A DNA stretch of 38,837 bases from Clostridia bacterium (GTDB taxonomy: Bacteria; Bacillota; Clostridia; Oscillospirales; Acutalibacteraceae). Below are positions 10,784-31,382 of this stretch, in pieces. A program made the position numbers and the translations under genes. Position 1 is the stretch's first letter; every line of letters starts with the position of its first letter. The notes beneath the pieces were generated by a model that saw only the letters and a program-made list of their open reading frames with translations, did not search any database and was not told the origin of the DNA. The stretch covers positions 1 to 38,837 of the forward strand of contig JAFSIV010000011.1 in assembly GCA_017439585.1 (NCBI GenBank), given 5' to 3'.

Positions 10784-10786
10784 AGT

Positions 10787-12049: not shown

Positions 12050-12062
12050 TACATTCACCTTC

Positions 12063-13502
12063 CTATCTTGTAGTACCTGTTACCATATAAGAACCTTCGT
12101 TGTTCTTGTTGATTTCATCTGTGCTAACACCAAGCTCGCGAGCCAAAATTTCTATAACCTTAGGACCGCAGAAACCACCTTGGCAACGACCCATACCAGC
12201 TCTTACTCTACGCTTAATAGCGTCAACACTCTTAGCGCCTACGGGACGGTTGATAGCATCAACGATTTCAGCCTCTGTAATGGTTTCGCAACGGCAAATA
12301 ACATTACCGTATAATGGATTTTCTTTAATGAGCTCGTCTTGAACCTCTCTTGATTGCTCAGAGAATTTGATAATACCTTTTCTCTTAGAAATAAAGTTTT
12401 CTTTAAGAGTTAGCTCTGCACCATGGAACATCATCTGCTGAACAACATATTTGCCCATTGCAACCGAAAGAGTAAGACCGGTTGAACGAACACCCGAAAG
12501 GTTTACATAGCCCTTCAAATCATCATACATATCGAAGTTAAGACCCTCAGGATTTCTATTCGCTCTAAGACCGCTATACTGAGTGATAGTGTCTCTAAGA
12601 TTTACATTAGGAATAAGGTTGCTAACATCTGCCGCAACACTAGCAAGTCCCTCAGCAGAGGTGGACTTATCAACCTTTGAGGGTTGGTCTTCTGCGGTAG
12701 GTCCTACTAACATATTTCCGTGAATAGTTGGGCACATAAGCTTACCCTTAGTTATCTTGGTAGGAATTGGGAGAACTATATTATTAACCTTGCAAGAGGT
12801 GTTTTTATCTAAAATATAGAACTGACCCTTTCTTGCAACTACCTTATAATCAGCCTTTCCAACCATTTCAGCAATTTCATCACAATAAAGACCTGCACTG
12901 TTAATTACATAGTCAGCCTCGATTTCGCCCTTGGTTGTTACAACGCTTTTTACTCTGCCGTTTTCGGTTTTAATATCTGTAACCTTAGCATTTAACATAA
13001 AGGTTGCGCCGTTATCAGCCGCGTTTTCAGCAAGTGCCTGAACAAGAATAAAGGGATCAATAATACTTTCGCGAGGAATATAAAGACCGCCCTTAACCTC
13101 AGGATTCAAATTAGGCTCCATTTCAAGAAGCTCTGCACCTGTTTTATACTCAACATCATAAACATGGTTTTTGAAAGCTTTTTCCTTAATAGCAGGAAGC
13201 TGTTTAAATTGCTCCTCGGTTATTGCGGGGAGAATTGCACCTATTCTTTTAAAAGGAACATCCAAAGATTTAACAAGCTCATCATACATAGGGTTGGCAG
13301 CAACCACCAATTGAGACTCTAATGTTCCGGGGGCAGCATCATATCCAGTATGTATAATAGCACTGTTTGATTTAGAAGCATCTCCACCGATATCCTCATT
13401 CTTATCAACAACTACTACATCGATTTCATATTTAGAGAGCTCTCTTGCTATTGCGCAACCAACAGCTCCCGCGCCAATTACAACCGCTTTTTCCTTGTTC
13501 AT
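12063..13502 (-). CDS. GlpA-like FAD-dependent glycerol-3-phosphate dehydrogenase with BFD domain
   Basis: FAD-dependent DAO-family dehydrogenase of 479 residues, likely converting glycerol-3-phosphate to dihydroxyacetone phosphate. The FAD motif GAGAVG is at 10-15, and the substrate domain has SAGLYCDEIA and SGLRANRNPE-type segments. A C-terminal BFD-like [2Fe-2S] domain carries C403, C405, C440 and C445 (CRC and CQGGFC). It is the first gene of the operon, with a perfect-consensus promoter and an AGGAGTG ribosome binding site. Another 2-hydroxy acid substrate cannot be excluded, but the gene set is the one normally annotated for anaerobic glycerol-3-phosphate oxidation. Confidence 0.88.
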   Translation of the reverse strand: MNKEKAVVIGAGAVGCAIARELSKYEIDVVVVDKNEDIGGDASKSNSAIIHTGYDAAPGTLESQLVVAANPMYDELVKSLDVPFKRIGAILPAITEEQFKQLPAIKEKAFKNHVYDVEYKTGAELLEMEPNLNPEVKGGLYIPRESIIDPFILVQALAENAADNGATFMLNAKVTDIKTENGRVKSVVTTKGEIEADYVINSAGLYCDEIAEMVGKADYKVVARKGQFYILDKNTSCKVNNIVLPIPTKITKGKLMCPTIHGNMLVGPTAEDQPSKVDKSTSAEGLASVAADVSNLIPNVNLRDTITQYSGLRANRNPEGLNFDMYDDLKGYVNLSGVRSTGLTLSVAMGKYVVQQMMFHGAELTLKENFISKRKGIIKFSEQSREVQDELIKENPLYGNVICRCETITEAEIVDAINRPVGAKSVDAIKRRVRAGMGRCQGGFCGPKVIEILARELGVSTDEINKNNEGSYMVTGTTR

Positions 13503-13558
13503 ATTTTCACACTCCTGAATTTCTATTTATTTAGCAAAATGCCAAAACAACTAAAATA

Positions 13559-13587
13559 ATTATACAACTCTGTTAATATTTTGTCAA
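13559..13587 (-). promoter_or_regulatory. Consensus promoter of the glpA-like operon
   Basis: Minus-strand -35 TTGACA (13582-13587), 17-nt spacer, -10 TATAAT (13559-13564), which is a full sigma-A consensus. It lies about 55 nt upstream of the start codon and diverges from the cytidylate-kinase-like promoter. Confidence 0.85.
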
Positions 13588-14380: not shown

Positions 14381-14430
14381 TTTTAAAAGGGTAATTTCAA
14401 GAAATCAACTCTTGAAATTACCCTTTTTTA
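14381..14430. terminator. Bidirectional intrinsic terminator
   Basis: An 18-bp perfect stem (14385-14402 with 14410-14427, core GGGTAATTTCAAGA) is flanked by A-runs on the left and T-runs on the right. It can end both the plus-strand cytidylate-kinase-like gene and the minus-strand operon that finishes with the MgtC-like gene. Confidence 0.92.
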
Positions 14431-14441
14431 TTGGTTCTAAA

Positions 14442-15131
14442 CTACATAGCAATATCCTTTAAAAACATTGCAACGCTACTGATTTCGCAAACCTTCTTTT
14501 TTATTTCCGAGAAATACTGTTGACCGTGCAAAACAAATATTATTCCAACATTTTGACTGTTTCCGCTCTTTGCGGGTATAATATTATATGAAATAACTGC
14601 ATTTTTATAACTATATATAAGGTCTACCACCTGCTCGGTTTCAGCAATATCAGTAAGCTCTAAATATACATTTATTATATTCTTTTCCTTATGTTCAAGT
14701 CTGCTCAAAATTGTAACACTGAAAATACATATAAATGTTGCAACAATCGCGCCAACATAGAAGCCATAACCTGCGGCTATTCCTATTGCGGCGGTTGCCC
14801 ACATACCTGCGGCAGTGGTAAGTCCCGTAATAATAGAACTGTTGCGCACCATAATAGTTCCTGCACCCAAAAAGCCTATACCTGAAATAACCTGAGCCGA
14901 AATTCTTGCAATATCGCCGCCTGAACCTAAGGTCTCGCTTAAAAACATACTTGTAACAGAGGACATTGCTGCGCCAACACAAATAAGTATATGAGTTCTA
15001 AGTCCCGCAGGTCGTCCGTGTCTTCCTCTTTCAGAACCTATAAGACCGCCAAGTAGCGTTGCCAATAGCAATCTGAGTATCGCGGTTACAGAATTAAATT
15101 CAAGTAAATAATCATAAATTTGTTCTAACAT
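14442..15131 (-). CDS. MgtC/SapB family membrane protein
   Basis: Protein of 229 residues with an N-terminal membrane domain of about four to five helices and a soluble ACT-like C-terminal part (about 150-229). The family signature LLGGLIGSERGRHGRPAGLRTH is present near residue 27, shown here only in part. MgtC-family proteins relate to magnesium limitation and membrane energetics; some regulate the ATP synthase. It is the last gene of the long leftward operon, 19 nt after the HAD gene. Its link to the catabolic genes is not obvious, and it may be a passenger. Confidence 0.88.
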   Translation of the reverse strand: MLEQIYDYLLEFNSVTAILRLLLATLLGGLIGSERGRHGRPAGLRTHILICVGAAMSSVTSMFLSETLGSGGDIARISAQVISGIGFLGAGTIMVRNSSIITGLTTAAGMWATAAIGIAAGYGFYVGAIVATFICIFSVTILSRLEHKEKNIINVYLELTDIAETEQVVDLIYSYKNAVISYNIIPAKSGNSQNVGIIFVLHGQQYFSEIKKKVCEISSVAMFLKDIAM

Positions 15132-15150
15132 TTTTCGGCTTATCTCCTAT

Positions 15151-15765
15151 CTAAATTTCTAAATAACTTTTAAGCTTTTGAGCATATCCGTCAAACAAAT
15201 ATCCAAAAATTTCTTCTTGAAGCGATGCAGAAACATTTTTCTCATTATCGTCAATAAAAACCGTATCGCCAGGATTTAAATTATATTCATTTAAAATATA
15301 TCTGAATATTTCTTTGTTTGGCTTAGTTATTCCAAGCGGTGCAGAAAATACTAAACCATCAAATAAATTTAAAATTTCTGACATATTAGAAACATTTTCA
15401 TATTCCTTTGCAAAGGTATCGCTTATATTCGAAAGCAAATAAAGCTTTCCGCCTTTTTTCTTTATTTCTTTAATAAGCTCAGGCATACCCTCTATGAATT
15501 CTAAGTTCTTATACCAATTATCATAAACCTTGCAAGCATCAGTATGAAGTTCTTTTGGAAGCCTCTTACAAATACCTTTTCTAACCTCTTCATCAGTTAT
15601 GGTTCCTGCATCTAATCTATCCCAATAAAGTCTGTCAAAAACAACCTCTTCTACCATTTTAACATCTTGCGGTTTTATATAAACAGATGTCATATACTCG
15701 GTATCAAACTTAACTATAACCTGACCGAAATCAAATATAAAGTTTTTAAATTTTAAATTATTCAT
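15151..15765 (-). CDS. HAD-superfamily hydrolase (subfamily IA)
   Basis: Phosphatase-like protein of 204 residues. Motif I is FDFGQV with nucleophile D12; the second aspartate of the classic DxD is glycine, as in YihX-type alpha-glucose-1-phosphate phosphatases, so the variant need not mean inactivity. Motif II is LLSNIS, a lysine lies in ITKPNKEIF, and motif IV is FIDDNEKNV. The ribosome binding site is AAGGA. It lies 18 nt after the PHP gene. A sugar-phosphate substrate is plausible but inferred only from the family and the operon. Confidence 0.85.
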   Translation of the reverse strand: MNNLKFKNFIFDFGQVIVKFDTEYMTSVYIKPQDVKMVEEVVFDRLYWDRLDAGTITDEEVRKGICKRLPKELHTDACKVYDNWYKNLEFIEGMPELIKEIKKKGGKLYLLSNISDTFAKEYENVSNMSEILNLFDGLVFSAPLGITKPNKEIFRYILNEYNLNPGDTVFIDDNEKNVSASLQEEIFGYLFDGYAQKLKSYLEI

Positions 15766-15783
15766 TTTAAAATCCTTACAATT

Positions 15784-16788
15784 TTATTTATCCAAGAAAT
15801 ATGCATTAGAATAGCATACCGAGCCATCCATACCGACAACGGTTACTCTAACATATTCGTCTTCATCATAATCTATCTCGAAGCTTCCGCTTGTAACCGC
15901 AGTTCCGTCTTCATTATAGATATGCTTAGCGTGTCTAATAGCGGTATTAAATAATATTCTTCTGGCTTCACTGGTTTCAACATGCATAACTCCGTCTTCA
16001 ATATAAAGACTCTTAATTTCAGGTCCGTTTGTTGCATAGAAATTACCTTTTTTAAGGCTTTCGCAAATATCCTTATAAGTAAGCTTCGGTGCTCTGATAA
16101 CAGTCCAAGCCACTCCGGCATCGGTTGCGCGATGATTATCGTCTCCTGCAACAGCAAAAATCTTTTTACCCTGTCTCAAAAACAGTTCAAAATCACGATG
16201 ATTAAATTCAAACTGACCGTCTATAATAAATGAACCGCCGTTAATTAACTCCATCGCATCCATTTCTTCATAAGTACCATATTGCTCAAAGGTTTCAAGC
16301 GACCAAGCAGGATGATTATATGTAACAAAAAATCCCTTTTCTTTGCATTTTCTCATAAATTCCCTAACCGTTTCGGGATTATATACTCTATCAAAATCAG
16401 GCTCATTTTCATCATATTTTACGAGCTCTCGGCTAGACTCAGGAGCATAATATAAATATTCTGTTCTATGAAAACAAGGCTGATTAACTATATTTTCATC
16501 AAGAGCAATCATACATAAATGGGTTGTTCTTCTTTTTCTTCTTTTTTCATTTAAATCTATAAACTCAGCTTCAAAACCGTTTAAAGCTAAAAAGCTTTCG
16601 TCAGACAATTCCTTATGGTGCGGAATAAAAACATCATGGTCAGTATAAGCCACAATACTATAACCGAGTTTTTTGTACTGTTCTTTTACTTCTTGTGGTG
16701 TTAATCTTGCGTCTGAAAGAGTGGTGTGACAATGCAAATTTGCACGATAATCATTACCTGTTTCGCTTAAAATAAATTCTTTTGCCAT
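15784..16788 (-). CDS. PHP-domain metal-dependent phosphoesterase
   Basis: Protein of 334 residues with the PHP metal motif near the N-terminus (H19-C-H21, then D26), AYTDHD, a central NHPAW and a late GDDNHRA. These are metal-ligand motifs of the PHP fold, which hydrolyses phosphomonoesters or cyclic phosphates. The C-terminal 70 residues look beta-rich. It lies between the GRE activase (20 nt upstream) and the HAD phosphatase, so the operon encodes three different phosphoesterases. This suggests a phosphorylated substrate or product. Confidence 0.83.
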   Translation of the reverse strand: MAKEFILSETGNDYRANLHCHTTLSDARLTPQEVKEQYKKLGYSIVAYTDHDVFIPHHKELSDESFLALNGFEAEFIDLNEKRRKRRTTHLCMIALDENIVNQPCFHRTEYLYYAPESSRELVKYDENEPDFDRVYNPETVREFMRKCKEKGFFVTYNHPAWSLETFEQYGTYEEMDAMELINGGSFIIDGQFEFNHRDFELFLRQGKKIFAVAGDDNHRATDAGVAWTVIRAPKLTYKDICESLKKGNFYATNGPEIKSLYIEDGVMHVETSEARRILFNTAIRHAKHIYNEDGTAVTSGSFEIDYDEDEYVRVTVVGMDGSVCYSNAYFLDK

Positions 16789-16808
16789 AATAAAAACTCC
16801 TATTTAGC

Positions 16809-17564
16809 TTATAATTTATATTCCATACCAAGCATTTTATATTTAGCTCCCGCCATAGAATTATAAGGAATTTCCTCAAAACTGCTATCGCCTATTATTT
16901 CCTTTATAGCCGTTAAATTTTCTTTTGTATCGGTTATATTGGGAATCAGCGGTGTTCTTATAATATAAGGCTTACCGCTGTTTTTAAGTATTTCAAAATT
17001 AGCAAGAATTTGTTCATTATAAACACCTGTATACTCTTTATGCTTTAAAGTATCAGCTATCTTTATATCCATTATAATGAAATCTAGCTTTTCTATTACC
17101 TTTTTAAAAATTTCGGTTTCAGCATAACCCGAAGTTTCAATGCATAGATTATAACCCTTTAATTTATCGCAAAGCTCCGATAAAAATTCAGCCTGCATTA
17201 AAGGCTCGCCGCCCGAAAATGTAAAACCTCCAAAGGTATCACCTAAAACATTTGCAGATTGTTTTAGTTCTTCTGCAAGCTCGTTCACAGTAACATCTCT
17301 GCCAACAATTTCGAGGCAGTTTTCAGGACAAGCGTGAATACATTGTCCAAACGGTTTACATTCAGGATGGTCGCACTCGGTCTGACAGTTTTTACAGCCT
17401 ATACATCTTATTTCCTTATACATAAGCTGAGGTTTCATACTCAATCCCTCAGGATTATGACACCAACGGCACCTTAATGGGCAGCCCTTAAAAAACACGG
17501 TTGTTCTAATACCCGGTCCGTCATGCACCGCCATCTCTTTAATATCAAATATAGTTGCTTTCAT
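16809..17564 (-). CDS. Glycyl-radical enzyme activating protein (radical SAM)
   Basis: Radical SAM protein of 251 residues that would abstract hydrogen from the glycine of the neighbouring GRE. The SAM-cluster cysteines are C28, C32 and C35 (GCPLRCRWC), preceded by DGPGIRTTVF. An inserted ferredoxin-like domain holds C54, C57, C60, C64, C75, C79 and C83 and likely binds two auxiliary Fe-S clusters, as in activases of dehydratase-type GREs. The GGE motif is FSGGEP. It starts 3 nt after the SGNH gene with no good ribosome binding site, so it probably depends on coupled translation. Confidence 0.93.
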   Translation of the reverse strand: MKATIFDIKEMAVHDGPGIRTTVFFKGCPLRCRWCHNPEGLSMKPQLMYKEIRCIGCKNCQTECDHPECKPFGQCIHACPENCLEIVGRDVTVNELAEELKQSANVLGDTFGGFTFSGGEPLMQAEFLSELCDKLKGYNLCIETSGYAETEIFKKVIEKLDFIIMDIKIADTLKHKEYTGVYNEQILANFEILKNSGKPYIIRTPLIPNITDTKENLTAIKEIIGDSSFEEIPYNSMAGAKYKMLGMEYKL

Positions 17565-17567
17565 ATT

Positions 17568-18323
17568 TTAAAGAAACATCATCTTAACAGCGCGAGCATT
17601 ATATTCGCCTATTTTTTTAGCACCATTCACATTAGGATGCAACCCGTCTATTAAATCTCTGCCGTTTTCTCCTAATTTTTCGTATATACCGCAAATACCG
17701 CAGTTAAATGTATCAATAAACTCAACATCCGAAATTATATCGCATACACTTGCCATTAAATTTCTTTTATAAAGAATTGAATTATACGGACGGATTTCTT
17801 CAACCGCTTGTATTGGCGAACAGAAGCAAATCTTGGCATTAGGATATAATCTGTCTAAATTTTCATAAATATATCTCATCGCACCCGGCCAGGTGTAACA
17901 ATCCACTTCCTCAGAAGGCAATATAAAACCCTCTGTAACAAATTGTTCTTCAATCGCATCTATATCGCATTTTTCCTTAGTGAAGGTATCATTAGTACCT
18001 GCGGCAATAAAAATCAAATCAAATGCTTCAAAGTCGGGATTATAAGAATAGTTTTTATTATTCGGGTCTTTTGCTCTTAAAACCTTCTCTACCTGATTAC
18101 AAACAACATTTTGGTCATAATCTGTATTATCGCCTAAAAATACAGGGTTACCGTCAAACTCAACCTCTTCGTTGTTTGATAGTCTAGCTCCGTTAACCGC
18201 AAGATTAACAAATAAGGAAGGCTCGATTATTTCGTTAAAATACTTAACCCAACCTCTGTCCGTTGTGTTTAATGCAGTTATGCTATCGCCTAAAAACAAA
18301 ATTCTTTTATTCTTATAACTCAT
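17568..18323 (-). CDS. SGNH/GDSL-family hydrolase
   Basis: Esterase-like protein of 251 residues. Block I is FLGDSIT with nucleophile S14, block III is AAGTNDT, and block V is DGLHPN with the catalytic D/H pair. There is no signal peptide, so it acts in the cytoplasm. It is placed between the GRE and the GRE activase, so it is probably part of the same pathway, perhaps removing an acyl group from the substrate. The AGAGGTT ribosome binding site overlaps the GRE stop codon region. Confidence 0.87.
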   Translation of the reverse strand: MSYKNKRILFLGDSITALNTTDRGWVKYFNEIIEPSLFVNLAVNGARLSNNEEVEFDGNPVFLGDNTDYDQNVVCNQVEKVLRAKDPNNKNYSYNPDFEAFDLIFIAAGTNDTFTKEKCDIDAIEEQFVTEGFILPSEEVDCYTWPGAMRYIYENLDRLYPNAKICFCSPIQAVEEIRPYNSILYKRNLMASVCDIISDVEFIDTFNCGICGIYEKLGENGRDLIDGLHPNVNGAKKIGEYNARAVKMMFL

Positions 18324-18334
18324 AATTTTAACCT

Positions 18335-20317
18335 CTATACAGTATAAGTTTGTCTTGAAATTACATGGTCTTGATATTCTTTATCAAGCTCAACAAAATA
18401 AGCACTCCAACCCCAAATACGAACAACTAATTGTCTATAATTTTCAGGGTGAATTTGAGCATCTTTCAGTTTATCAATATTAACGGCATTAAGCTGCAAT
18501 TGATGACCGCCTTTATCAATAAATGCTTTAACAAGCATACCAACCTTTTCAACGCTTTCTTCATCAGTAAACAAGGACTGATGGAATTCAAGGGTTAGCG
18601 GGCCTCCGTTTATCGCTCTTTCAAAATGAGGCTTGGTCATTGAGCCTATAACCGAAACCGGACCTTTAACATTAGCAAAAAGACTAACCGAGAAGTTAGT
18701 TCCGAGCGGTTCGCCCTTTCTTCTGCCATCAGGAGAAGCACCGAGCTCATCAGCGTGCCATAAATAATACATAGCACTGCCTGTTCCCGCTCTGAAAATT
18801 CCACCGCGCTCGTTCTTTTTACCCTCTAAGGCATTTGCAAAAGAATCAAGCAAGCAAACCGCAATACTATCAACATAATCATCGTTATTTCCAACCTTAG
18901 GACTTTCAAAACGAAGCTTATGCAAGAAAACACTGTCATTTTCGAAATCACAGTCTACCGCTTTAATATAATCCTCTTTTGAAATTGATTTTTCCTCGAA
19001 AACATATTTCTTAATAGCGGCAAGGCTATCAGCAGCGGTTGCAATACCTGTTCCGTGAATACCGTAGTTATTATATTTACCGCCGTTATAAATATCGCAA
19101 TCCATAACAACATTCATAAAAGGCGACGGAATAAACCAAAGATTTTCAAGTCCCTTGCAGATTTCATCGCATTGATTTTGAATTCTAAGTTCAACCGCTT
19201 TATAAAAATCTTCATAAGTTTGAGAAGCTTCTAAATCTTTATGAAAAGCCTCATCAACCGCCCTTGCGTAAGATAAAGCGCCTATATTAGCAACATCTGC
19301 ACCAACAAAGGGCACTATAAATTCCCAACAAGCCGCAACGGTATAATTGGTTGCATCCTCATGAGAATATCCCAATTTTTCAAGAGCAGGTATAACAATA
19401 TCATCATTTGAATACTGAGGGAAGCCCAAGCCTGCTTTGGTTAAATAGCTTGCCTTAGTATATATTTCCTTAGTTGTATTTTTATTAACTCTCAAATTGA
19501 TTTTAGGGTCGATAAGCAAATTGTTTTCGCTGGCTTTAAGGCATAGCTCTGACAAGGTATTAAACACCTCGTCACCCTTTTCATCTATACCGCCAAGCAT
19601 CATACTTTGACCGTTATCACCCTGCTGAACTCCAACATATAAATCGCTATCCTTATTAAAGGAAAGGAAAAAATCCTCCAATAGCTCTAACGCGGTTTCA
19701 TAGGTTAAAACACCGTTATCCATATCGGCTTTAAGATATGGATACATATATCGGTCAAAACGGCCAACAGTATTATGATAATTTCCTTCCAACCATAATG
19801 AATAATGGATAATACGGAAGAACTGCAAAGCCTCTCGGAAGTTTCTTGCCTTGTATCTCGGCACCTGAGTTAAAACCTCAACTAAATCTGCTCTACCCTG
19901 CTTTTTAGCTTCTTCTAAATACTTATCAGAAAGAGCAATAATATTATCTATTGCGCGCTTGCCGTATTCGTCGGCAGTTTCGCGTTTTGCTAAAAGACCG
20001 TTAGCAATAGCATCATAATAGTTAGGAGAAAGGTTAGACATAAAGCCTAATTCATGAATATGATGCTTCTTGTTTATTTCTGCCCACTCACTGTCAGTAA
20101 AAATCGCGGGAAGATTTGAAACAGTGCGCAAAAAACAGATTTGCTCATTTTCTAAAATAACCGCTTTTTCCTCATTACATAATTTTTCAAAACGGTCTGC
20201 CATACGCTCAATAGGACTTAAATTCTTAGCAGCATATTCGCTTGCTAAATCCCAATCAACAGTATGACGGTATTTATGATGTTCTTTCGAAATGATAAAG
20301 TTTAACAAACCACTCAT
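18335..20317 (-). CDS. Uncharacterised glycyl radical enzyme (PFL/dehydratase superfamily)
   Basis: Radical enzyme of 660 residues, much shorter than PFL, CutC or glycerol dehydratase (about 750-850). The glycyl site is RIWGWSA with G636; the usual RVxGYSA has its tyrosine replaced by tryptophan. The thiyl site is AACWE, with C330 followed by E332. A cysteine with glutamate two residues later is the dehydratase/lyase pattern, not the double cysteine of pyruvate formate-lyase. GQSMMLGG and GRFDRYMYPYL are further family segments. The gene has a good AAGGAG site and sits in an operon with its activase, an MFS transporter and several hydrolases. The substrate is unknown; a polyol, sugar or related C-O/C-N bond cleavage is my inference. 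Confidence 0.9.
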   Translation of the reverse strand: MSGLLNFIISKEHHKYRHTVDWDLASEYAAKNLSPIERMADRFEKLCNEEKAVILENEQICFLRTVSNLPAIFTDSEWAEINKKHHIHELGFMSNLSPNYYDAIANGLLAKRETADEYGKRAIDNIIALSDKYLEEAKKQGRADLVEVLTQVPRYKARNFREALQFFRIIHYSLWLEGNYHNTVGRFDRYMYPYLKADMDNGVLTYETALELLEDFFLSFNKDSDLYVGVQQGDNGQSMMLGGIDEKGDEVFNTLSELCLKASENNLLIDPKINLRVNKNTTKEIYTKASYLTKAGLGFPQYSNDDIVIPALEKLGYSHEDATNYTVAACWEFIVPFVGADVANIGALSYARAVDEAFHKDLEASQTYEDFYKAVELRIQNQCDEICKGLENLWFIPSPFMNVVMDCDIYNGGKYNNYGIHGTGIATAADSLAAIKKYVFEEKSISKEDYIKAVDCDFENDSVFLHKLRFESPKVGNNDDYVDSIAVCLLDSFANALEGKKNERGGIFRAGTGSAMYYLWHADELGASPDGRRKGEPLGTNFSVSLFANVKGPVSVIGSMTKPHFERAINGGPLTLEFHQSLFTDEESVEKVGMLVKAFIDKGGHQLQLNAVNIDKLKDAQIHPENYRQLVVRIWGWSAYFVELDKEYQDHVISRQTYTV

Positions 20318-20345
20318 ATTCTTATAATCTCCTTAAATTCATAAT

Positions 20346-21551
20346 TTAAGCTTCTTTTATTCGTTTATTTATAAAAATGCTTATAACCGAACCGATAACT
20401 CCAACAAGCATAATTAAAACCCAAGAAATTATAACCCCGTTCCAATTTGAGAAGGAGGCAAAAAATGCATTAAGCATAGCCGCGGCGGCATAACCCGAAA
20501 AATCGAATACACCGTTGCCGGTTGAAACACTGCCGTATTTTGCGAGACTCGGTATATAAATACTCCAAAGCACCGTTGAAGCGCAGCCGGTTGTAATCTT
20601 AGCCAAAGCAAAAAGCAAAATGTTAAGAATCGGTATCCCTTTTGTGAAAATAAGCAAAAGGAAAAAGAAAGCAGAAAGCGCAAACATTAAAGCTTCAAGC
20701 TTTATATAGTCCTTAAAAAATCTATGATATATGAAAATACAAACAAACGGAGCTACTAAATTAAGAAGCGAAATCACCGAGAAAACTCCTGCGCTCATTT
20801 TCTGCGAAAGCTCTAAATATTCAGTCATATAAGTGGGTATCCAGAAGGTAATCGAAGATGTTGCTATCTCAACAATGGCAGCAACAAGCAAGAAAAAAAC
20901 GAAATTTGGAATAAAAAACAGATTTTTAAGCCCTTTAAAAATGTTTTCTTTTTTACTCTTAAAAGTTATAATTCCTTTCCTTTCAAGCACAGAAAAATAG
21001 AAAAAAGAGCCTATGCCCATAACCAGCGCAAATATAGCTGTTACATAAAACACCCATTGCCACTTAAACACAATAGCCAGTAAACTCGCAAGCAAAGGAC
21101 CTGCAAATGAAGCTACCGAAAATAAAACGCAGACCGTTTCAGCCGCAGTTGAAGACATATTCTCTGCAATAATTTTCATTAAAGGACCTCTGAGCATTGA
21201 AAGACCAAATCCGAGCATTGCAAAAGAGGCAATATTTAGAATAGGGTTATTCCAAACAGGAAATAACAACATTCCGCTGCCTGCAATAAGGCAACCTATT
21301 AAAATCATATATTTAGAGCGTATTCTATCGCCCAAAACTCCGTTTAAAAGCTGACCTATGGCATATACCGCAAAATATACGGTTGAAAATAATCCAAGCT
21401 CCGACTTTGTATAAATCTTTTCTTCAACAAGAGTCGGGGTTACAACACTTGTTATATTTCTTGAAAGATAGCTTACCAAATATGTAAAAATACAAATTGA
21501 ACCGATTTTAGCCGAGCTTTTAAACATATTATTCGTTTTAGTTAAAGACAT
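20346..21551 (-). CDS. MFS transporter
   Basis: Twelve-helix permease of 401 residues. The loop 2-3 motif GVLGDRIRSKY is clear, and a long charged loop lies near 200 between the two halves. The N-terminal SYLSRNITSVVTPTLVEE segment is reminiscent of the organophosphate:phosphate antiporter group (GlpT/UhpT-like), though I cannot settle this by eye. It is the second gene of the GRE operon, 28 nt upstream of the GRE, so it probably imports the GRE substrate or a precursor. Confidence 0.87.
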   Translation of the reverse strand: MSLTKTNNMFKSSAKIGSICIFTYLVSYLSRNITSVVTPTLVEEKIYTKSELGLFSTVYFAVYAIGQLLNGVLGDRIRSKYMILIGCLIAGSGMLLFPVWNNPILNIASFAMLGFGLSMLRGPLMKIIAENMSSTAAETVCVLFSVASFAGPLLASLLAIVFKWQWVFYVTAIFALVMGIGSFFYFSVLERKGIITFKSKKENIFKGLKNLFFIPNFVFFLLVAAIVEIATSSITFWIPTYMTEYLELSQKMSAGVFSVISLLNLVAPFVCIFIYHRFFKDYIKLEALMFALSAFFFLLLIFTKGIPILNILLFALAKITTGCASTVLWSIYIPSLAKYGSVSTGNGVFDFSGYAAAAMLNAFFASFSNWNGVIISWVLIMLVGVIGSVISIFINKRIKEA

Positions 21552-21583
21552 TTTGCTTTTCGCCTTTCTGATGCGAAATCTTA

Positions 21584-22663
21584 TTAATTAAATTTAATAA
21601 CAGATTTTTCAGAAACATTTCCGTTGCTATCGCAAAATACCGTTTCTAATGAATCTTTTCCTATAATAAGACCGCAACCTAAATGAAAATCCTTTTTCTT
21701 ATCAGAGCCAACAATTAAGGTGCAAGGCTGACCCAAATGGTCATATTCACTTCCGATTTCAGATATAAAATAATCATGTAAATGCCCTGCCAGCATAATA
21801 TCAGGCTTAACCCCATCTTTTAAAAGACTAGCCCATTCAGAGTAAATTTCCTTTTCAATATCAAAGGGTGATTTTAGCAAAAGAGTAAACGGATTATGAC
21901 TTATAACCATTTTGCAGGTTATTCCCTCTTTTTCAAATTCCTTTGAAGCAATAATATCTTTTATAAACTCAATCTGACGCTTTCTGAAATCATGACAGCT
22001 AACAGTAAATCCGTATTCTGCATGACTGTCATCCTTATCCTCGCCGCAGTCTAGCACAATTCCCCAGATAGAGCCTACTTTGAATGAGTAATAAGTATTA
22101 CCTTTATCGTTTGGAGTGTATTCCGCCATACTTTCGGCAAAATAGCCTCTTAAATCGTGGTTTCCGCGAGAAAATACGGTTGGCTTCTCGCCATGAGTTA
22201 TCCTCTCTATTATCTCGTAAATAACATCGTAATTCTCAATAGCACCACTATGGTCGGGAATATCACCGTTTAAAATAAGCAAATCAATATTCCCAAAGGT
22301 TTCAGCCGCTTTTACAGGCTCATTTACCATATTATGAGTATCAGCAATATGATAAACTCTGGGGTTATCATAAGGCACAGGATAAAAATCAAACTCGGTT
22401 CTAACCGTTTCCTCGGTTTCGGGGAAATAAGGCTTACGGTCGATAATTTCCCGCTCGCAAACGGTGTATTTCCCAGCTTTATCCAAAACCTGTTGAGGCA
22501 CTGTAACTCTATGAATAGTGCAAATAGAACGCATTATTCCGTTTTGCTCATCGCAATAACGCTTTCCGTCTATCTCAACCCAAAACAAAGACGGTTTTGT
22601 TACAGGAACCATTATCTGATAATTATTACCCACCGCAAAAACCGCAGGAGAAGTTTTAAGCAT
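21584..22663 (-). CDS. Calcineurin-like metallophosphoesterase with N-terminal beta domain
   Basis: Protein of about 359 residues. The metal motifs are HIADTHN, LNGDIPDH, RGNHDLRG, VISHNP and LAGHLHD, in normal order. The first 110 residues look like a beta-sandwich as in purple-acid-phosphatase-type proteins. No signal peptide is seen. ATG at 22663 follows AAGGTGGGG; a GTG five codons earlier overlaps that site and is less likely. It is the first gene of the GRE operon, so a phosphodiester or phosphomonoester probably enters the pathway here. Confidence 0.87.
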   Translation of the reverse strand: MLKTSPAVFAVGNNYQIMVPVTKPSLFWVEIDGKRYCDEQNGIMRSICTIHRVTVPQQVLDKAGKYTVCEREIIDRKPYFPETEETVRTEFDFYPVPYDNPRVYHIADTHNMVNEPVKAAETFGNIDLLILNGDIPDHSGAIENYDVIYEIIERITHGEKPTVFSRGNHDLRGYFAESMAEYTPNDKGNTYYSFKVGSIWGIVLDCGEDKDDSHAEYGFTVSCHDFRKRQIEFIKDIIASKEFEKEGITCKMVISHNPFTLLLKSPFDIEKEIYSEWASLLKDGVKPDIMLAGHLHDYFISEIGSEYDHLGQPCTLIVGSDKKKDFHLGCGLIIGKDSLETVFCDSNGNVSEKSVIKFN

Positions 22664-22710
22664 AAAATAACACCCCACCTTATAACTAAAAAACTATATT
22701 ATATAAGCAT

Positions 22711-22739
22711 ATTATAAATTATTGTTAATTTATTGTCAA
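22711..22739 (-). promoter_or_regulatory. Consensus promoter of the eight-gene GRE operon
   Basis: Minus-strand -35 TTGACA (22734-22739), 17-nt spacer, -10 TATAAT (22711-22716), a perfect sigma-A match about 45 nt upstream of the metallophosphoesterase start. The eight genes downstream have gaps of 3 to 32 nt and no internal terminator, so this is likely their common promoter. No operator-like palindrome is evident here. Confidence 0.85.
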
Positions 22740-22778: not shown

Positions 22779-24014
22779 CTATATTTTTTCAATCTCATTT
22801 GAAAGAGCTATATAAACGCCTGCCGTCCAACCCATCATTTCAACCTTTGCCTGAGTTTTATATTCAGGGTTTGCAACCTTACCGGTAACACCGTCGTACT
22901 TCTCCCAGAAGCAATCGGTTTCCTCGTAATTTGCCTCAACAAGCTTAACATACTTAGTTGCAATTCTAAGTGCTTCTTCGTCATAACCGTAATTTTTAAG
23001 AGCAATATACATAACAAACTGCAAGGGTGCCCAAACATTAGGATAATCCCATTGGAAGCTCAAACAGTTTTCCTTAACACCGCAAGCCACGCCATATTCC
23101 TGTTCTAAATCTTTAAGGAGCTTAACGGTGCTTTCAGCCTCCTTACTGCTTGCCATATTAACAAACATTGGGAAAAAGCTTGCAATACTTTTATATTTAG
23201 AAAACTCATTTTTATCGAAATCAAAGTCCATAAAAAGACCTTCATTTTTGTTCCATAAAATTTCTCTAACCTTTTTAACTCTTAAATCGCGTCGCTCACT
23301 CCAAAGCTCTTCCTCGCCAAGACCTAAAATTTCTGAAAATACCCTCATATTCTCCTCAAAATCATAAATAAGCGCATTTAAATCTATCGCATTGAAATGG
23401 TGACCGCGATTTACAAAACGAGACGAGCAATCCCAACCGCATTCGTAAATCGAAAAAGCGGCAAGACAGTTTTCCTTTTTCTGCTCATCGGTAACAATAT
23501 CCTCTAAATTGAGCTTACAGCGAACGCAAAATCTCTCTAAGGTTTTTTCGGGGTCTCCCTCTTTAACCTCAAAGCCTAAATAACCGTTTAATCCGTTAGG
23601 AGCTACTTTATCGGTCTGCCAGAATTTATATTCCTTAACAAGAGTTTTATAGGCAGCCAAAAGCCAATCCTTATCCTTTGTAACCTCAAAAACGTCTCGC
23701 ACCATTCTTGATAAAAAGGGAGGTTGCGAGCGATTTAAATAATAAGTTCTGTTTCCGTTTGGCATATGACCGAATTTCTCAACCATATAAAGCATATTAT
23801 CAATATTGCTTTTAGCATAGGAAACCTTTCCTAGCATTATCATACCAATATTTGAAAAATATGTATCCCAATAATAAATTTCTTGGAAATGGTCGCCAAC
23901 GCAAGGCACAGTGTATTCAAAGGGAAGCCCTATAAGTGTGCCCTCGTCCTTTGGAGAATATCTTACCGTTTTATCAATATTTTCAGTTACAAATTTTTTG
24001 ATTTTTTCGTTCAT
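22779..24014 (-). CDS. GH37 trehalase-like glycoside hydrolase
   Basis: Alpha/alpha-barrel hydrolase of 411 residues. Both GH37 signatures are present in modified form: GDHFQEIYYWDTYF (40-53) and QWDYPNVWAP (321-330). The catalytic acid is D195 in ECGWDCSSRF, and the base matches E371 in FWEKYDG, both aligning with E. coli trehalase. It is shorter than TreA (about 550) and has no signal peptide, so it would cleave trehalose or a related alpha-glucoside inside the cell. It is the third gene of the glycosidase operon, 11 nt after the GH36 gene, with a GGTG-type ribosome binding site. Confidence 0.86.
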   Translation of the reverse strand: MNEKIKKFVTENIDKTVRYSPKDEGTLIGLPFEYTVPCVGDHFQEIYYWDTYFSNIGMIMLGKVSYAKSNIDNMLYMVEKFGHMPNGNRTYYLNRSQPPFLSRMVRDVFEVTKDKDWLLAAYKTLVKEYKFWQTDKVAPNGLNGYLGFEVKEGDPEKTLERFCVRCKLNLEDIVTDEQKKENCLAAFSIYECGWDCSSRFVNRGHHFNAIDLNALIYDFEENMRVFSEILGLGEEELWSERRDLRVKKVREILWNKNEGLFMDFDFDKNEFSKYKSIASFFPMFVNMASSKEAESTVKLLKDLEQEYGVACGVKENCLSFQWDYPNVWAPLQFVMYIALKNYGYDEEALRIATKYVKLVEANYEETDCFWEKYDGVTGKVANPEYKTQAKVEMMGWTAGVYIALSNEIEKI

Positions 24015-24025: not shown

Positions 24026-26203
24026 TTATTTTTTCTTTAAAACAATAATTTTGCTGGCATAATCTCTATCGGGATGAATTTTAATTCCAAATTGGCTTAA
24101 AAATTCGCCTGAATATTCTTTGCCGTTTTCATCGGTATAAATAGCCGCCAAATCCAAGCCTTTAAGCTTAGCATACTTATATGCATTATTAGGTCTGCCA
24201 CGCATAACATAAACACAAACGATAACGGTGTTTTCATCCTCAGATATAAACTGATTAACCGCAACATCACTGTTTTCAGGTGTTATAATGCGGTATAAAT
24301 CGCCGTTATGGAAAACATCAGCAAGCTTATGATAGGTCTTGATCTGCTCCTTAACTGCTTCCTTTTCCTCGTTTGATAAGATACCTAAATTAAGCTCATA
24401 GCCTAGCTGACCGCAAATTGCAACATCCCCTCTGAATTTAATTGGGGTTGTTCTAAAAACTTGATGGTTAGGAACAGCCGAAACATGAGCACCCATAGCA
24501 GAATAAGGGTAGCAAAGACTTGTTCCATACTGTATATCTATTCTTTCTAAACCGTCCGAATCGTCGCTGGTCCAAATCTGAGGCATATAGTATAAGATAC
24601 CGGGGTCAAAACGACCGCCACCTCCTGAGCAGCCCTCAAACAACACATTCGGGAAATTAGAGGTTAAATATTCCATTATGTCATAAAGACCGAGCATATA
24701 TCTGTGAGCTATCTCACCCTGTTTTTCACCGCTGAATGCAGGCGAGCCAAACTCGGTTATATATCTGTTCATATCCCACTTGATATACGAAATATTAACG
24801 GTTGAAAGAATTTCGCTCATAAAGCCTTTAACATAATCGCAAACCTCAGGTCTTGATAGGTCGAGTACTAACTGGCTTCTGCCGAGGGTTCTATCTCTGC
24901 CCCCTTGATGCAAGCACCAATCGGGATGCTCTCTATAAAGGTTGCTATCGGGAGAAACCATTTCAGGCTCAAACCAAAGACCAAATTTAAGTCCCTCATT
25001 ATTTACCTTTTCAGCCAATCCCTTAACTCCGTTCGGAAGCTTTCTTATGTCAGGAGTCCAGTCTCCCAAGGAACAGTCATCCTGGTCGCGTTTTCCAAAC
25101 CAACCGTCATCCAAAACCATAAGCTCAACGCCGAGCTCGGCGGCACTCTTGGTTATATCAAGAATTTTTTCCTCATTAAAATCAAAATATGTAGCTTCCC
25201 AGTTATTTATTAAAACAGGGCGCTTAATGTCTCGATATGCACCTCTGCAAAGCCTTGTTCTATAAAGCTTATGGAACTTTCTGGACATTTCGCCCAAACC
25301 GTTATTACTATAAACCAATACAGCCTCAGGAGTAGAAAAGGTTTCACCCTTTTCTAAAACCCAAGAAAAACCGATTGGGTTAATACCCATAAACGCGCGG
25401 GTTATATCATAATCCTCTTTTTGCACACCTGCAACAAAATTACCTGAATACACAAGGTTAAAGCCATATGCCTCTCCGTATTCCTCATTTGCTTCGGGAG
25501 AAACCAATGCAATAAAAGGATTATGAATATGCGAGCTTGTTCCCCTTATACTTTCAACCTGCATTGTTCCGCTTTTAACATAGGTTCTTTGCGGCTTGCG
25601 CTCTCTTGCCCAAACACCCGATAAATGAATAAAATCAAATTCCTTGCTATCGAAATCAACCGTCATACTCAAAGCCTTATTTAAACGGTAAGGCTTATCG
25701 GCGGTGTTCTCAAAAACAACCGCTCTGGTAATAACATTAAAATCCTCGTAAACACCGTAAAGCAAGGTAACCTTTAATCCCGAATAGGAATCTAAAAGGT
25801 GAATTTTGAGAGTGTTAACCTTATCGCCCTCCTCAGCATAAACCGAAGGCATACCCTCTACCTTATACTTTCCGTCTATTATCTCATAAGAATCGAATTT
25901 AAGGTTGGAAGCAGTGGTAAACTCACCGTCAACACCGTAAAAAGCGGGTGTTCTGAAATCGCCTCTGCCATATTCAGAATACTCCATTGTTAAATCATTA
26001 GAAGACATTTTCTTTCCGTTCCACATAATGTCGGTAGAAGAAAAGGTTCTTGTATAATTAACTGCGAGCATATCCTCCAAAGCAGGAACGCACTTTATAG
26101 CCTTGCCCCAATATAAATTTAATAATTTGCCCTCAAAAATGCCGATAACATAACTTGTATCGCGGGTTTTTAAATGAAAAAGATTGTTATTAAAAGTAAT
26201 CAT
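24026..26203 (-). CDS. GH36 alpha-galactosidase
   Basis: Protein of 725 residues that releases alpha-linked galactose from melibiose, raffinose or stachyose. The N-terminal beta-sandwich covers about 1-320. The barrel has NNWEATYFD, LDDGWFGKRD and GLWFEPEM. Nucleophile D477 lies in YIKWDMNR, and the acid/base aspartate is in TSDDSD (545-550). No signal peptide, so it is cytoplasmic. The ATG at 26203 has GAGGAG 7 nt upstream; the longer in-frame start at 26218 would put that site inside the gene. It lies 11 nt after the first GH36 gene. Confidence 0.95.
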   Translation of the reverse strand: MITFNNNLFHLKTRDTSYVIGIFEGKLLNLYWGKAIKCVPALEDMLAVNYTRTFSSTDIMWNGKKMSSNDLTMEYSEYGRGDFRTPAFYGVDGEFTTASNLKFDSYEIIDGKYKVEGMPSVYAEEGDKVNTLKIHLLDSYSGLKVTLLYGVYEDFNVITRAVVFENTADKPYRLNKALSMTVDFDSKEFDFIHLSGVWARERKPQRTYVKSGTMQVESIRGTSSHIHNPFIALVSPEANEEYGEAYGFNLVYSGNFVAGVQKEDYDITRAFMGINPIGFSWVLEKGETFSTPEAVLVYSNNGLGEMSRKFHKLYRTRLCRGAYRDIKRPVLINNWEATYFDFNEEKILDITKSAAELGVELMVLDDGWFGKRDQDDCSLGDWTPDIRKLPNGVKGLAEKVNNEGLKFGLWFEPEMVSPDSNLYREHPDWCLHQGGRDRTLGRSQLVLDLSRPEVCDYVKGFMSEILSTVNISYIKWDMNRYITEFGSPAFSGEKQGEIAHRYMLGLYDIMEYLTSNFPNVLFEGCSGGGGRFDPGILYYMPQIWTSDDSDGLERIDIQYGTSLCYPYSAMGAHVSAVPNHQVFRTTPIKFRGDVAICGQLGYELNLGILSNEEKEAVKEQIKTYHKLADVFHNGDLYRIITPENSDVAVNQFISEDENTVIVCVYVMRGRPNNAYKYAKLKGLDLAAIYTDENGKEYSGEFLSQFGIKIHPDRDYASKIIVLKKK

Positions 26204-26214
26204 AAAAATTCTCC

Positions 26215-28122
26215 TCAATATTCCTTAAAAATAAGTTTCCTGTTTTCAACAAAAGCGTACTCGCCTTTTTCTAATGGTTTAAATTCACCATCCAAAAACT
26301 CATAAGTTTTTGGTGAAATAAATTTATCAGTTTTGCCTATAACAGCATTTCCGTTTTTAAGCGGAACAATTATATATAACTTGCAGTCATCATAATCATT
26401 TAAGGTTATTTCGGTTTTATCCTCAATTTTTAAAATTTGAATAGTTTTTGAGAAATAATCATAAACCGCAAATTCTTCGCCATCAAGTCCCTCAATATCG
26501 CTCGGCGAAATCGTTCCCGAAACCGAAAGGTTATCTTTATTCAAATTAAATGCTTCTAATATTCCGCAACCGTTTGCAATATTCTGAATTTTAAATATTT
26601 TTTGATTGCAAGTAGGGTCTTCCAATAAACAGTCCTTGGTTGGAACACCGATACTGTCGCACATAAGGATTTTACCGTCTGCAAAAGTGAGCGGCTCTAA
26701 AATTTCCTTGCGGCTTCTATTACTTGTATCACTAACATAAATCGGTCCGCCGCTTATTGCTCTTAAAAGACTGTTTTTCATGCCCTGAGAATCATCAGTC
26801 CACCACATATCCCAATCAGGATAATAAAACTGACCTTGTACCAAGGTATTATAAGCACATTGAGTTATATGCTTAACAAACCATCCGCGGTCCTCGGGCT
26901 TGAAATCATCACTGCATCTTGAAATAGGACTAAGCGTTCTATTCCACATATCCTCGCTCGCCATTCCCATGCAGTTAATCATTTGGCTTTCAAAATGCTC
27001 TTTAACCGAAGCTTCCATAGCATTGTGGAACTGCCTTGAAGCAGAGCCAACCGAGGCTAGCTTTTTATAAAATCTTCGAGTCATACTCTGGTTATCTATT
27101 TTAACGAACTCTGCCCCGCAGTCCTTTAAATGATCGTGAAAAGCGTTATAAAATTTATAAGCCTTTTCTTCTTCAAAGGACGGAATATAAATTCCGCTTT
27201 CGGTTTTTATAAGCAAATCTTTATGCTCTTTAAAAATCTCGCCGTTTTCATCAATACCTGCCCAATACCCAGTCGTCGGGTGCCACATACCAACCGAAAT
27301 TCCGTATTCATTCATTTTATGTATGCAGGTTTTTAAACCGTTTGGGAAACGCCTCGGGTCTGCTTTAAAGGAATAAAGCTTAGACGAATGCATAAGTTTA
27401 AACATTTCCTCGCGGGTTTCGTAAGGGGCATCATAAAATTGCCTAACCTCAGCCCACATATCGTCAAGAATAGCCCATTTAACAGGGATTTCTTTTTCCT
27501 TAAATTCCTCGCATTTGGAAAGTAAATCCTCTTCGCTAACCCGAATCTGAAATGCATCCCAACTGCACCAACCGAGATATCTAAAAATTTCAGGATATTC
27601 CCTATCCTTGCGAAGCTTACAATTATTTCCTAAAAGCTTTACTGCAACCGAAACACATTTCTCAACTAACTCATAAGGGTTATCCCCCTCAGCAAAAACA
27701 AAGGAAAGCGCTTTAACCTTTTTAAGACCGTCAACCCAGCTATAAAGCCTAGCCTCTAATATGCCATTTTCGTTTCCTTCAAGGGTACATTTATAATCCT
27801 TGGAAACAACCGGCAATATAACCCCATAACTTCCGCTTGAATTTTGATAAAACAAGCATTGCGTGTTATTTGGAACATTCGAAATTTCAGTTCCAAACTC
27901 AGGAACACACCAAAATTCTATTTTTCTGAAATACGACATCCATTTAGTTACATTCAAATCCTCAATTTGAATTACCGCTCCAAGCTCGCTATCAATATTT
28001 TCTTCAATTTCGCCATCAAAATATACCGCAGATACACCGTCAACCGAGTCCATTCTATAAAAATTTGAAGATGAAAATTCCTCTTCCTTTGCCGAACGAA
28101 TATAAGCTTTCCTAATATTCAC
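26215..28122 (-). CDS. GH36 raffinose-synthase/Sip1-type glycosidase
   Basis: Protein of 635 residues resembling plant raffinose synthase and alkaline alpha-galactosidases. Visible motifs are GWCSWDAF, WAILDDMW, and FVKIDNQS with nucleophile D343; the acid/base is in SRCSDD (D405 or D406). It is a different GH36 branch from its neighbour and could hydrolyse or transfer galactose. The start is GTG at 28122, chosen because GAGGTG lies 6 nt upstream; a GTG three codons earlier falls inside that site. It is the first gene of the glycosidase operon and has a leader of roughly 175 nt. Confidence 0.88.
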   Translation of the reverse strand: MNIRKAYIRSAKEEEFSSSNFYRMDSVDGVSAVYFDGEIEENIDSELGAVIQIEDLNVTKWMSYFRKIEFWCVPEFGTEISNVPNNTQCLFYQNSSGSYGVILPVVSKDYKCTLEGNENGILEARLYSWVDGLKKVKALSFVFAEGDNPYELVEKCVSVAVKLLGNNCKLRKDREYPEIFRYLGWCSWDAFQIRVSEEDLLSKCEEFKEKEIPVKWAILDDMWAEVRQFYDAPYETREEMFKLMHSSKLYSFKADPRRFPNGLKTCIHKMNEYGISVGMWHPTTGYWAGIDENGEIFKEHKDLLIKTESGIYIPSFEEEKAYKFYNAFHDHLKDCGAEFVKIDNQSMTRRFYKKLASVGSASRQFHNAMEASVKEHFESQMINCMGMASEDMWNRTLSPISRCSDDFKPEDRGWFVKHITQCAYNTLVQGQFYYPDWDMWWTDDSQGMKNSLLRAISGGPIYVSDTSNRSRKEILEPLTFADGKILMCDSIGVPTKDCLLEDPTCNQKIFKIQNIANGCGILEAFNLNKDNLSVSGTISPSDIEGLDGEEFAVYDYFSKTIQILKIEDKTEITLNDYDDCKLYIIVPLKNGNAVIGKTDKFISPKTYEFLDGEFKPLEKGEYAFVENRKLIFKEY

Positions 28123-28296
28123 AAAAATCACCTCTGAGCCTATTCAGAAAATCAACAAAAATATGTTATATTTTAATGATTTACAACCTTTCCACCGAAA
28201 CAAACAAGAAAAAGGCAAAAAATCACTTATTTCCCCATAAAACATAGCTAAAAATCGTTACATTTCAAGCAATGAAACAAAAATACAACAAACTAC

Positions 28297-28318: not shown

Positions 28319-28334
28319 CGCTTCAAACTGTAAA
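28306..28334 (-). promoter_or_regulatory. Promoter of the glycosidase operon
   Basis: Minus-strand -35 TTTACA (28329-28334), 17-nt spacer, -10 TATAAT (28306-28311). It is about 180 nt upstream of the first glycosidase start codon and diverges from the AraC-type gene promoter. Confidence 0.75.
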
Positions 28335-28364
28335 TGTATTTTTGCGAATATATATATGGATTTT

Positions 28365-28393
28365 TTGGACAAAAAATGATACCATCATATTAT
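28365..28393 (+). promoter_or_regulatory. Promoter of the AraC-family gene
   Basis: Plus-strand -35 TTGGAC (28365-28370), 17-nt spacer, -10 TATTAT (28388-28393), followed by AGAGGA and the ATG at 28424. It is a moderate match to sigma-A consensus. Confidence 0.6.
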
Positions 28394-28423
28394 AAAATTT
28401 CTTGCAAAAAAGAGGAAAATTAT

Positions 28424-29233
28424 ATGAGAACAATTAAAAACGATTACATTCTTCCAAGCAAAAACAATTCCCCTATTCTGCATATAAACACCTGTGGATT
28501 ACAATCTTTTGACGATTCTTTAACCGTTATTAGAGAAAACGGCTCAAAAGATTTTCATTTGCTTTATATTAAAAGCGGTTACTGTACCGTTCATTTTAAA
28601 TCAGAGATCAGGAAGCTCAGAGCGGGTGAATTTGTGTTTTATTTCCCAAACACAAAGCAAAAATATATATTCCCTTCCTCCCGTTCTGAAAGCTATTTCC
28701 TCCATTTTGGCGGTAGTTCAGTCGAAAAAATTTTAACCGCATTAGATTTAAAAGAGGGTTTTCATAAATGCAATCAATTCTTTCATTTATATGAAAAGTT
28801 TGACAGTTTAATTGTTTCAAGCAACAAATCTTTGCCTCGTTTTTCAGTGCATTCAATCTCTTTGCTATTGGATATTTTATATTTAGTTTCAGAGAAAAAA
28901 TCTGATTATGATATTTCAAATATTAATAATTTAATAAACTATATTACTGCAAACCACGATAAGCTAATTGATTTTGAAAGTATCGCCAAAGAGTGCGGTC
29001 AAAGTCTTCATAAAATGATTATTTCCTTTAAAAATCAAACCGGTATGACACCTAAACAATTTCAAGAAAAAACGCGCATAAAAATCGCCAAAGATTACTT
29101 AGTTAGTTCAAATATAAATATATCTAAAATTTCAAAACTAGTGGGATATGAGGACCAACTTTATTTCAGCCGAGTTTTTAAAAGGCATACGGGTCTTTCC
29201 CCTAAAAACTATCGAACAAATCATTCTTCTTAA
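28424..29233 (+). CDS. AraC-family transcriptional regulator
   Basis: Regulator of 269 residues with an N-terminal cupin-like sensor domain (about 20-120, including RAGEFVFYFPN) and a C-terminal double helix-turn-helix. The latter includes FESIAKECGQS and the family signature VGYEDQLYFSRVFKRHTGLSPKNYR. It is divergent from the glycosidase operon and most likely activates it in response to an alpha-galactoside or trehalose-type sugar. The ATG at 28424 follows AGAGGA. An upstream in-frame start at 28334 is rejected because it would begin before the promoter's -10. Confidence 0.9.
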   Translation: MRTIKNDYILPSKNNSPILHINTCGLQSFDDSLTVIRENGSKDFHLLYIKSGYCTVHFKSEIRKLRAGEFVFYFPNTKQKYIFPSSRSESYFLHFGGSSVEKILTALDLKEGFHKCNQFFHLYEKFDSLIVSSNKSLPRFSVHSISLLLDILYLVSEKKSDYDISNINNLINYITANHDKLIDFESIAKECGQSLHKMIISFKNQTGMTPKQFQEKTRIKIAKDYLVSSNINISKISKLVGYEDQLYFSRVFKRHTGLSPKNYRTNHSS

Positions 29234-31323: not shown

Positions 31324-31382
31324 TCGAACTCCCGACCTTCTGGTCCGTAGCCAGACGCTCTATCCAGCTGAGCTATCAGCGC
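31306..31382 (-). tRNA. tRNA-Arg (anticodon ACG)
   Basis: A 77-nt cloverleaf is clear on the minus strand: acceptor GCGCTGA/TCAGCGC, D-arm TAGCTCAGCTGGATAGAG, anticodon loop CTACGGA giving ACG (read as ICG after editing), T-loop TTCGAAT, and an encoded CCA. It decodes CGU/CGC/CGA. Confidence 0.97.

What the first reader, a model, noticed from the sequence alone, without database searches (positions are those of the whole stretch)
14442..22739. Eight-gene operon built around an uncharacterised glycyl radical enzyme
One perfect promoter precedes a metallophosphoesterase, MFS permease, GRE, SGNH esterase, GRE activase, PHP phosphoesterase, HAD phosphatase and MgtC-like protein, with gaps of 3-32 nt. 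Several hydrolases around one radical enzyme suggest a pathway in which an ester- or phosphate-bearing compound is imported, trimmed and then cleaved or dehydrated by radical chemistry. I know of no described GRE pathway with this set.
Basis: partly seen in the sequence, partly recalled or inferred. Interest (0 to 1): 0.75.

Follow-up and report, generated by a model that had tools for sequence, protein, structure and literature searches.

The report
Orphan radical enzyme in sugar operons
This gut-bacterial gene cluster encodes a compact radical enzyme of unknown substrate from a well-conserved family; the eight-gene set around it looks local, but the enzyme often occurs together with a plant-type sugar-cleaving enzyme, which gives a concrete lead to its substrate.

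Summary
In detail: eight same-strand genes with 3-32 nt gaps, a 12/12 promoter and a terminator-like stem.

The "pathway" reading is only partly supported. In 80 related loci, an activase homologue is present in 70, SGNH in 6, metallophosphoesterase in 4, PHP in 4, MFS in 2, HAD and MgtC in none (the two nearest relatives' contigs end before those last genes). The GRE is a real orphan: a compact (~660 aa) clade with 100/100 support, 26-32% identical to six reference GREs, below every NCBIfam equivalog cut-off listed. It keeps the radical Gly, thiyl Cys and CxE Glu, but has Asn at two sites that are His/Asp in PflD, plus invariant motifs of its own.

New lead: co-occurrence with raffinose-synthase-like GH36 (PF05691). 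Of 292 class genomes 14 have the GRE, 13 PF05691, 8 both (OR 73); controls are weak or null. Most likely it is a C-O-cleaving lyase for a sugar or polyol from alpha-galactosides. Substrate and reaction are untested.

The parts
28334..29233 (+). AraC-family regulator, divergent from the RAF operon
   Evidence: HTH_18, AraC_binding; an AraC-cluster gene is divergent from the GRE operon in 18 of the 77 loci that could read
26215..28131 (-). RAF: raffinose-synthase-like GH36 (PF05691)
   Evidence: E 6.7e-70; closest solved chain named 'Probable galactinol--sucrose galactosyltransferase 6'; K-x-D-x-Q and R-x-S-x-D-F motifs conserved in at least 90% of 39 rows
24026..26218 (-). GAL: GH36 alpha-galactosidase (Melibiase)
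   Evidence: E 7e-163
22779..24014 (-). TRE: trehalase / MGH1-like glycoside hydrolase
22711..22739 (-). sigma-70 type promoter, TTGACA-17-TATAAT
21584..22663 (-). MPE: calcineurin-like metallophosphoesterase (ATG start; GTG alternative at 22678)
20346..21551 (-). MFS permease; best NCBIfam match PgtP, far below cut-off
18335..20317 (-). GRE: compact glycyl radical enzyme, 660 aa; C330, E332, G636
17568..18323 (-). SGNH/GDSL hydrolase; homologue between GRE and activase in 6 of 80 loci
16809..17564 (-). radical SAM GRE activase with CxxxCxxC (C28, C32, C35) and further Cys
   Evidence: TIGR02494, 260 bits over cut-off 174
15784..16788 (-). PHP-type CehA/McbA metallohydrolase
   Evidence: NF038032, 91.9 over cut-off 80
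15151..15765 (-). HAD-superfamily phosphatase
   Evidence: no homologue found in the 80 loci
14442..15131 (-). MgtC-family membrane protein
   Evidence: no homologue found in the 80 loci
14385..14427 (-). intrinsic-terminator-like stem, listed on both strands

Best explanation
The GRE and its activase form a self-sufficient radical C-O lyase module used in plant-sugar catabolism by gut Clostridia. Shown by sequence: complete GRE catalytic set (G636, C330, E332), an activase with the radical SAM motif, one tightly conserved family, sugar-type regulators beside it in many loci, and co-occurrence with raffinose-synthase-like GH36. Inferred: an imported alpha-galactoside is cut inside the cell by RAF (and here GAL), and the GRE acts on the released sugar or polyol: the activase makes the glycyl radical at G636, C330 becomes the thiyl radical and takes H from a CHOH carbon, E332 removes the hydroxyl proton, and the neighbouring C-O bond breaks to give a deoxy-carbonyl product that ordinary fermentation enzymes can use. 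The phosphatase, esterase, MFS, PHP, HAD and MgtC genes are lineage-specific additions, not the core of the pathway.
Against: No substrate was tested. N95 and N344 replace PflD H156 and D433, so the leaving group or its acid may differ. Six of 14 GRE genomes in the class sample and 8 of 22 in the genus sample lack RAF at the thresholds used. Four of the 8 shared class genomes have RAF beside a GRE, and three of those four (G116, G176, G269, by equal contig length) are among the genomes of the 80 loci that suggested the idea; without these four and the own genus, 2 of 8 against 5 of 278 remain (p=0.013), and with same-contig genomes removed the genus test is 9 of 17 against 2 of 39 (p=1.3e-4). 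Related genomes are not independent, and no control of equal rarity was run. GH127 is also enriched in GRE genomes (OR 5, p=0.005).
Confidence: 0.5

Rival explanations
1. The eight genes are one dedicated pathway: a phosphate- or ester-bearing compound is imported by the MFS, trimmed by MPE/SGNH/PHP/HAD, then cleaved by the GRE.
For: Tight co-transcription layout in the window. L006 keeps MPE-MFS-GRE, L007 has MPE-GRE-activase, L066 MFS-GRE-activase-MPE, the MFS there only 24% identical.
Against: SGNH in 6, MPE in 4, MFS in 2, PHP in 4, HAD and MgtC in 0 of 80 loci (flanks are capped at 10 kb or end with the contig). In 11 of the 77 loci read the operon is GRE+activase alone behind a divergent AraC-cluster gene.
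Confidence: 0.15
2. The GRE dehydrates glycerol or a small diol released from galactosyl-glycerols (e.g. galactolipid head groups); the SGNH enzyme removes acyl chains, alpha- and beta-galactosidases the sugars.
For: Glycerol and propanediol dehydratases are among the nearest sequences and folds; SGNH lies between GRE and activase in 6 of 80 loci; GH2 enzymes appear in some loci; an FAD oxidoreductase set that I take for glpA-like is the next operon in the window (name inferred).
Against: Asp447 of glycerol dehydratase aligns with Asn344, and the His that I take for its H164, seen in PflD and YbiW, is Asn95. Glycerol kinase is not associated with the GRE (15 of 22 against 31 of 39). A 1,3-propanediol dehydrogenase was not searched for.
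Confidence: 0.15
3. Ecological rather than functional link: both PF05691 and the GRE are accessory genes of plant-glycan degraders and meet by shared niche and gene transfer. (Not exclusive of the others.)
For: GRE genomes are also richer in GH127 (10 of 14 against 93 of 278). Neighbourhoods are very diverse.
Against: GH94 shows no enrichment (6 of 14 against 150 of 278), melibiase-type GH36 little (OR 2.8, p=0.06) and DUF4867 none (OR 1.25, p=0.47), whereas PF05691 gives OR 32 and 73.
Confidence: 0.3

Closest known systems
Glycerol dehydratase (1r8w) and propanediol dehydratases (5i2a, 9rco)
   Same: Fold, CxE pair, glycyl radical loop; 1r8w is the best profile match in the PDB (321.6 bits)
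   Different: About 125 residues shorter than 1r8w; Asp447 is Asn344; own motifs
PflD and YbiW (structures with anhydrohexitol-6-phosphates)
   Same: PflD gives the highest Z (39.8, 39.5); sugar-derived ligands; ybiW lies next to the sugar phosphatase gene ybiV
   Different: 31% and 27% identity, outside the family's 100/100 clade; PflD H156 / YbiW H165 is Asn95. Their function is recalled (2024 JACS paper, not read); the titles show the ligands. FsaA-type aldolases were not searched for in the loci
trans-4-Hydroxy-L-proline dehydratase (HypD)
   Same: GRE with activase; NF043068 277.7 bits
   Different: Curated cut-off 1100 bits; context here is sugars
Choline TMA-lyase (CutC)
   Different: 29% identity; TIGR04394 223 bits against cut-off 1050; no microcompartment family among the 20 window proteins scanned
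Pyruvate formate-lyase
   Same: Superfamily and radical glycine
   Different: Single Cys followed by W-E rather than Cys-Cys (PFL motif recalled); TIGR01255 82 bits against cut-off 994

Membership tests
Glycyl radical enzyme superfamily (PFL-like + Gly_radical) | Gly radical loop and thiyl Cys loop in the GRE fold, with a radical SAM activase | tested here: met
   PF02901 and PF01228 over cut-off; C330 and G636 invariant in 58; model aligns from residue 1 to 660 to solved GREs; activase over the TIGR02494 cut-off
C-x-E (dehydratase/lyase type) GREs | Glu two residues after the thiyl Cys | tested here: met
   C330-W-E332 in the window, C and E invariant in 58 and present in 8 further members of 43-62% identity
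B12-independent glycerol/diol dehydratase | Asp447 (GDH number) | tested here: not met
   Aligned with Asn344, invariant in 58. The residue's role is recalled
B12-independent glycerol/diol dehydratase | His164 and His281-Ser282 (GDH numbers, recalled) | tested here: inconclusive
   GDH 164 lies outside the stretch aligned; the matching column in PflD/YbiW is Asn95 here. His181 is near the His281 site but differently spaced; no Ser follows
PflD / YbiW | Same clade; His at PflD 156 / YbiW 165 | tested here: not met
   Family forms its own 100/100 clade of 21 rows without them; Asn95 at that site
HypD, CutC, sulfopropanediol dehydratase, indoleacetate and HPA decarboxylases, PFL (NCBIfam equivalogs) | Score over the curated equivalog cut-off | tested here: not met
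   All listed equivalogs far below cut-off
Conserved eight-gene GRE pathway | The gene set recurs in relatives | tested here: not met
   80 loci; L006 alone keeps MPE-MFS-GRE in order. Contigs of L006 and L007 end too early to judge the downstream genes there
PF05691 raffinose-synthase-like GH36 (for RAF) | Pfam match over cut-off and conserved K-x-D and D-F motifs | tested here: met
   (236 bits, cut-off 20); motifs (catalytic meaning recalled)
PF05691 raffinose-synthase-like GH36 (for RAF) | Alpha-galactosidase or galactosyltransferase activity | not testable with these tools
   needs an assay

The most novel reading that the evidence does not exclude
This is the founding family of glycyl radical enzymes dedicated to plant alpha-galactoside catabolism: a radical lyase that opens or dehydrates a sugar or cyclitol (for instance the inositol side of galactinol-type galactosides), or even cleaves a glycoside by radical elimination, working in a pair with raffinose-synthase-like GH36 in rumen and hindgut bacteria.
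Probability: 0.25. Interest if true: 0.8.

Novelty: new variant of a known kind. Interest (0 to 1): 0.5.

Why it matters
A review states that many abundant GREs of the human gut microbiota have unknown functions (PMC11574389, passages seen). This family is tightly conserved in Clostridia, many of them from herbivore guts, and comes with a narrow, testable substrate lead (alpha-galactosides handled by PF05691 enzymes). If true it would add radical chemistry to plant-oligosaccharide fermentation in the rumen and hindgut.

Tried and rejected
Eight-gene pathway as a conserved unit: rejected. DUF4867 (between GRE and activase in L011; 2 of 106 partner proteins): no genus-level association (OR 1.25, p=0.47). 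Glycerol kinase as a sign of glycerol metabolism: no association. GH94 and GH127 as general glycan controls: none and mild (54, 56). The FGGY kinases of two loci are xylulokinase-like, one over and one just under that cut-off, not glycerol kinase. Rfam at gathering scores found only two tRNAs in the window. An alignment of the metallophosphoesterase was made but not folded.

Literature: eight searches of the open-access library, of which I saw listings only. 'glycyl radical' with 'galactinol' gave 0 papers; with 'raffinose' and 'galactosidase' 1, on E. coli metabolic regulation, not read. The only paper text I saw is passages of PMC11574389. The role of PflD/YbiW is recalled from a 2024 JACS paper not read here; absence from this library does not prove absence from print.
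Full report
OBSERVATION. The eight ORFs, their order, strand and 3-32 nt gaps are as described, and Pfam and NCBIfam agree with the names. The promoter at 22739-22711 is a perfect 12/12 match; two occur in the window against 0.03 expected. A long terminator-like stem closes the unit at 14427-14385. The order AraC-RAF-GAL-TRE-MPE-MFS-GRE is found again in the 96%-identical relative L006, whose contig ends in the GRE.

NEIGHBOURHOOD. A scan of the species-genome collection found 197 coding relatives, of which the best 80 were kept; 79 of the 80 titles name Bacillota taxa (the other is 'Bacterium 1xD8-48'), and 78 are metagenome assemblies, many with a ruminant or other herbivore gut in the title. 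In these 80 loci a homologue of the window's activase is found in 70. Of the other 10, five end within about 0.5 kb of the GRE's end (L006, L056, L070, L079, L083); eight (L070-L072, L074, L077, L079, L083, L084) are a group of 57-58% identity. SGNH is in 6, MPE 4, PHP 4, TRE 3, MFS 2, HAD 0, MgtC 0, GAL 8 and RAF 12 (tblastn E 1e-8, at least 40% of the query; flanks capped at 10 kb or at contig ends, so absence is not proof). could read 77 loci: an AraC-cluster gene is divergent from the GRE operon in 18, and in 11 of these the operon is GRE plus activase alone. LacI-type regulators, GH127, GH51-type, GH78, GH43, GH94, GH2 and GH4 enzymes and xylulokinase-like kinases are among the other neighbours that I annotated. 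Among 106 of 190 partner proteins (at most two per cluster) no Pfam family has more than 4 members. So the eight-gene set is local, and the module is GRE plus activase.

THE RAF LINK. In 61 genomes of the window's genus (own included) the GRE is in 22 and RAF in 16, both in 14 (OR 32, p 1.2e-6); in nine of the 14 they lie on different contigs of these drafts. Some of the 22 are partial matches, and one is 47% identical. In 292 genomes drawn from the class (same settings, taken to be the same draw) the GRE is in 14, PF05691 in 13, both in 8, from six families, the own one included (OR 73, p 3e-9; without the own genus both in 6 of 12 and 11, p 5e-7). Controls: GH127 10 of 14 against 93 of 278 (OR 5, p 0.005); GH94 6 of 14 against 150 of 278 (none); melibiase GH36 OR 2.8 (p 0.06); DUF4867 OR 1.25; glycerol kinase OR 0.55. 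GRE-linked RAFs occur on several branches of the RAF tree (35 rows), which speaks for repeated association. RAF's best solved relative is named a probable galactinol-sucrose galactosyltransferase (a plant enzyme, recalled).

MECHANISM. Shown by sequence: complete radical machinery and CxE. From established GRE chemistry (recalled): CxE enzymes take H from a hydroxyl-bearing carbon, the Glu removes the hydroxyl proton, and the neighbouring group leaves. Inferred: here the substrate is a sugar or polyol that arises together with alpha-galactoside cleavage. The two Asn, and the Trp, Gln and Asn in family-specific stretches, would suit a sugar-like substrate or another leaving group; I did not model a ligand. 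A GRE-activase-AraC unit without other operon partners in 11 of 77 loci suggests that the product can enter general metabolism without a dedicated enzyme beside it.

NOVELTY. I find no described GRE cluster with these features in the searches listed under Tried and rejected. It is a new, uncharacterised variant of a known superfamily rather than a new kind of system.

Noticed in passing
L137:6062-13798 (G176:C13): RAF, activase, family GRE, second activase and a second, only 28%-identical short GRE (668 aa) with a Cys-Cys motif and no CxE lie in tandem: perhaps two radical steps in one RAF operon.
   Followed up: partly
L147:8449-13475 (G153:C24): A family GRE lies close to another short GRE (659 aa) of only 24% identity to the window GRE, with GGGCTET at the Cys loop.
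   Followed up: partly
window 10427-13587: Next - strand set: FAD oxidoreductase with BFD-like Fe-S domain, pyridine-nucleotide oxidoreductase and a 118-aa ORF, behind the second perfect promoter of the window; I take it for a glpA-type glycerol-3-phosphate oxidation set (inferred).
   Followed up: no
L157:1311-8226 (G045:C69): A homologue of the window's metallophosphoesterase lies near a RAF and an AraC gene, with no GRE in the 19.5-kb stretch, so MPE may belong with RAF rather than with the GRE.
   Followed up: no
L069-L072, L074, L077, L079, L083, L084: Group of 57-59%-identical GREs, eight of nine without an activase hit in the locus (three of the eight end soon after the GRE); the activase may be encoded elsewhere.
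   Followed up: no
window 31309-31382 and 32746-32829: Two tRNA genes, on - and + strand.
   Followed up: no
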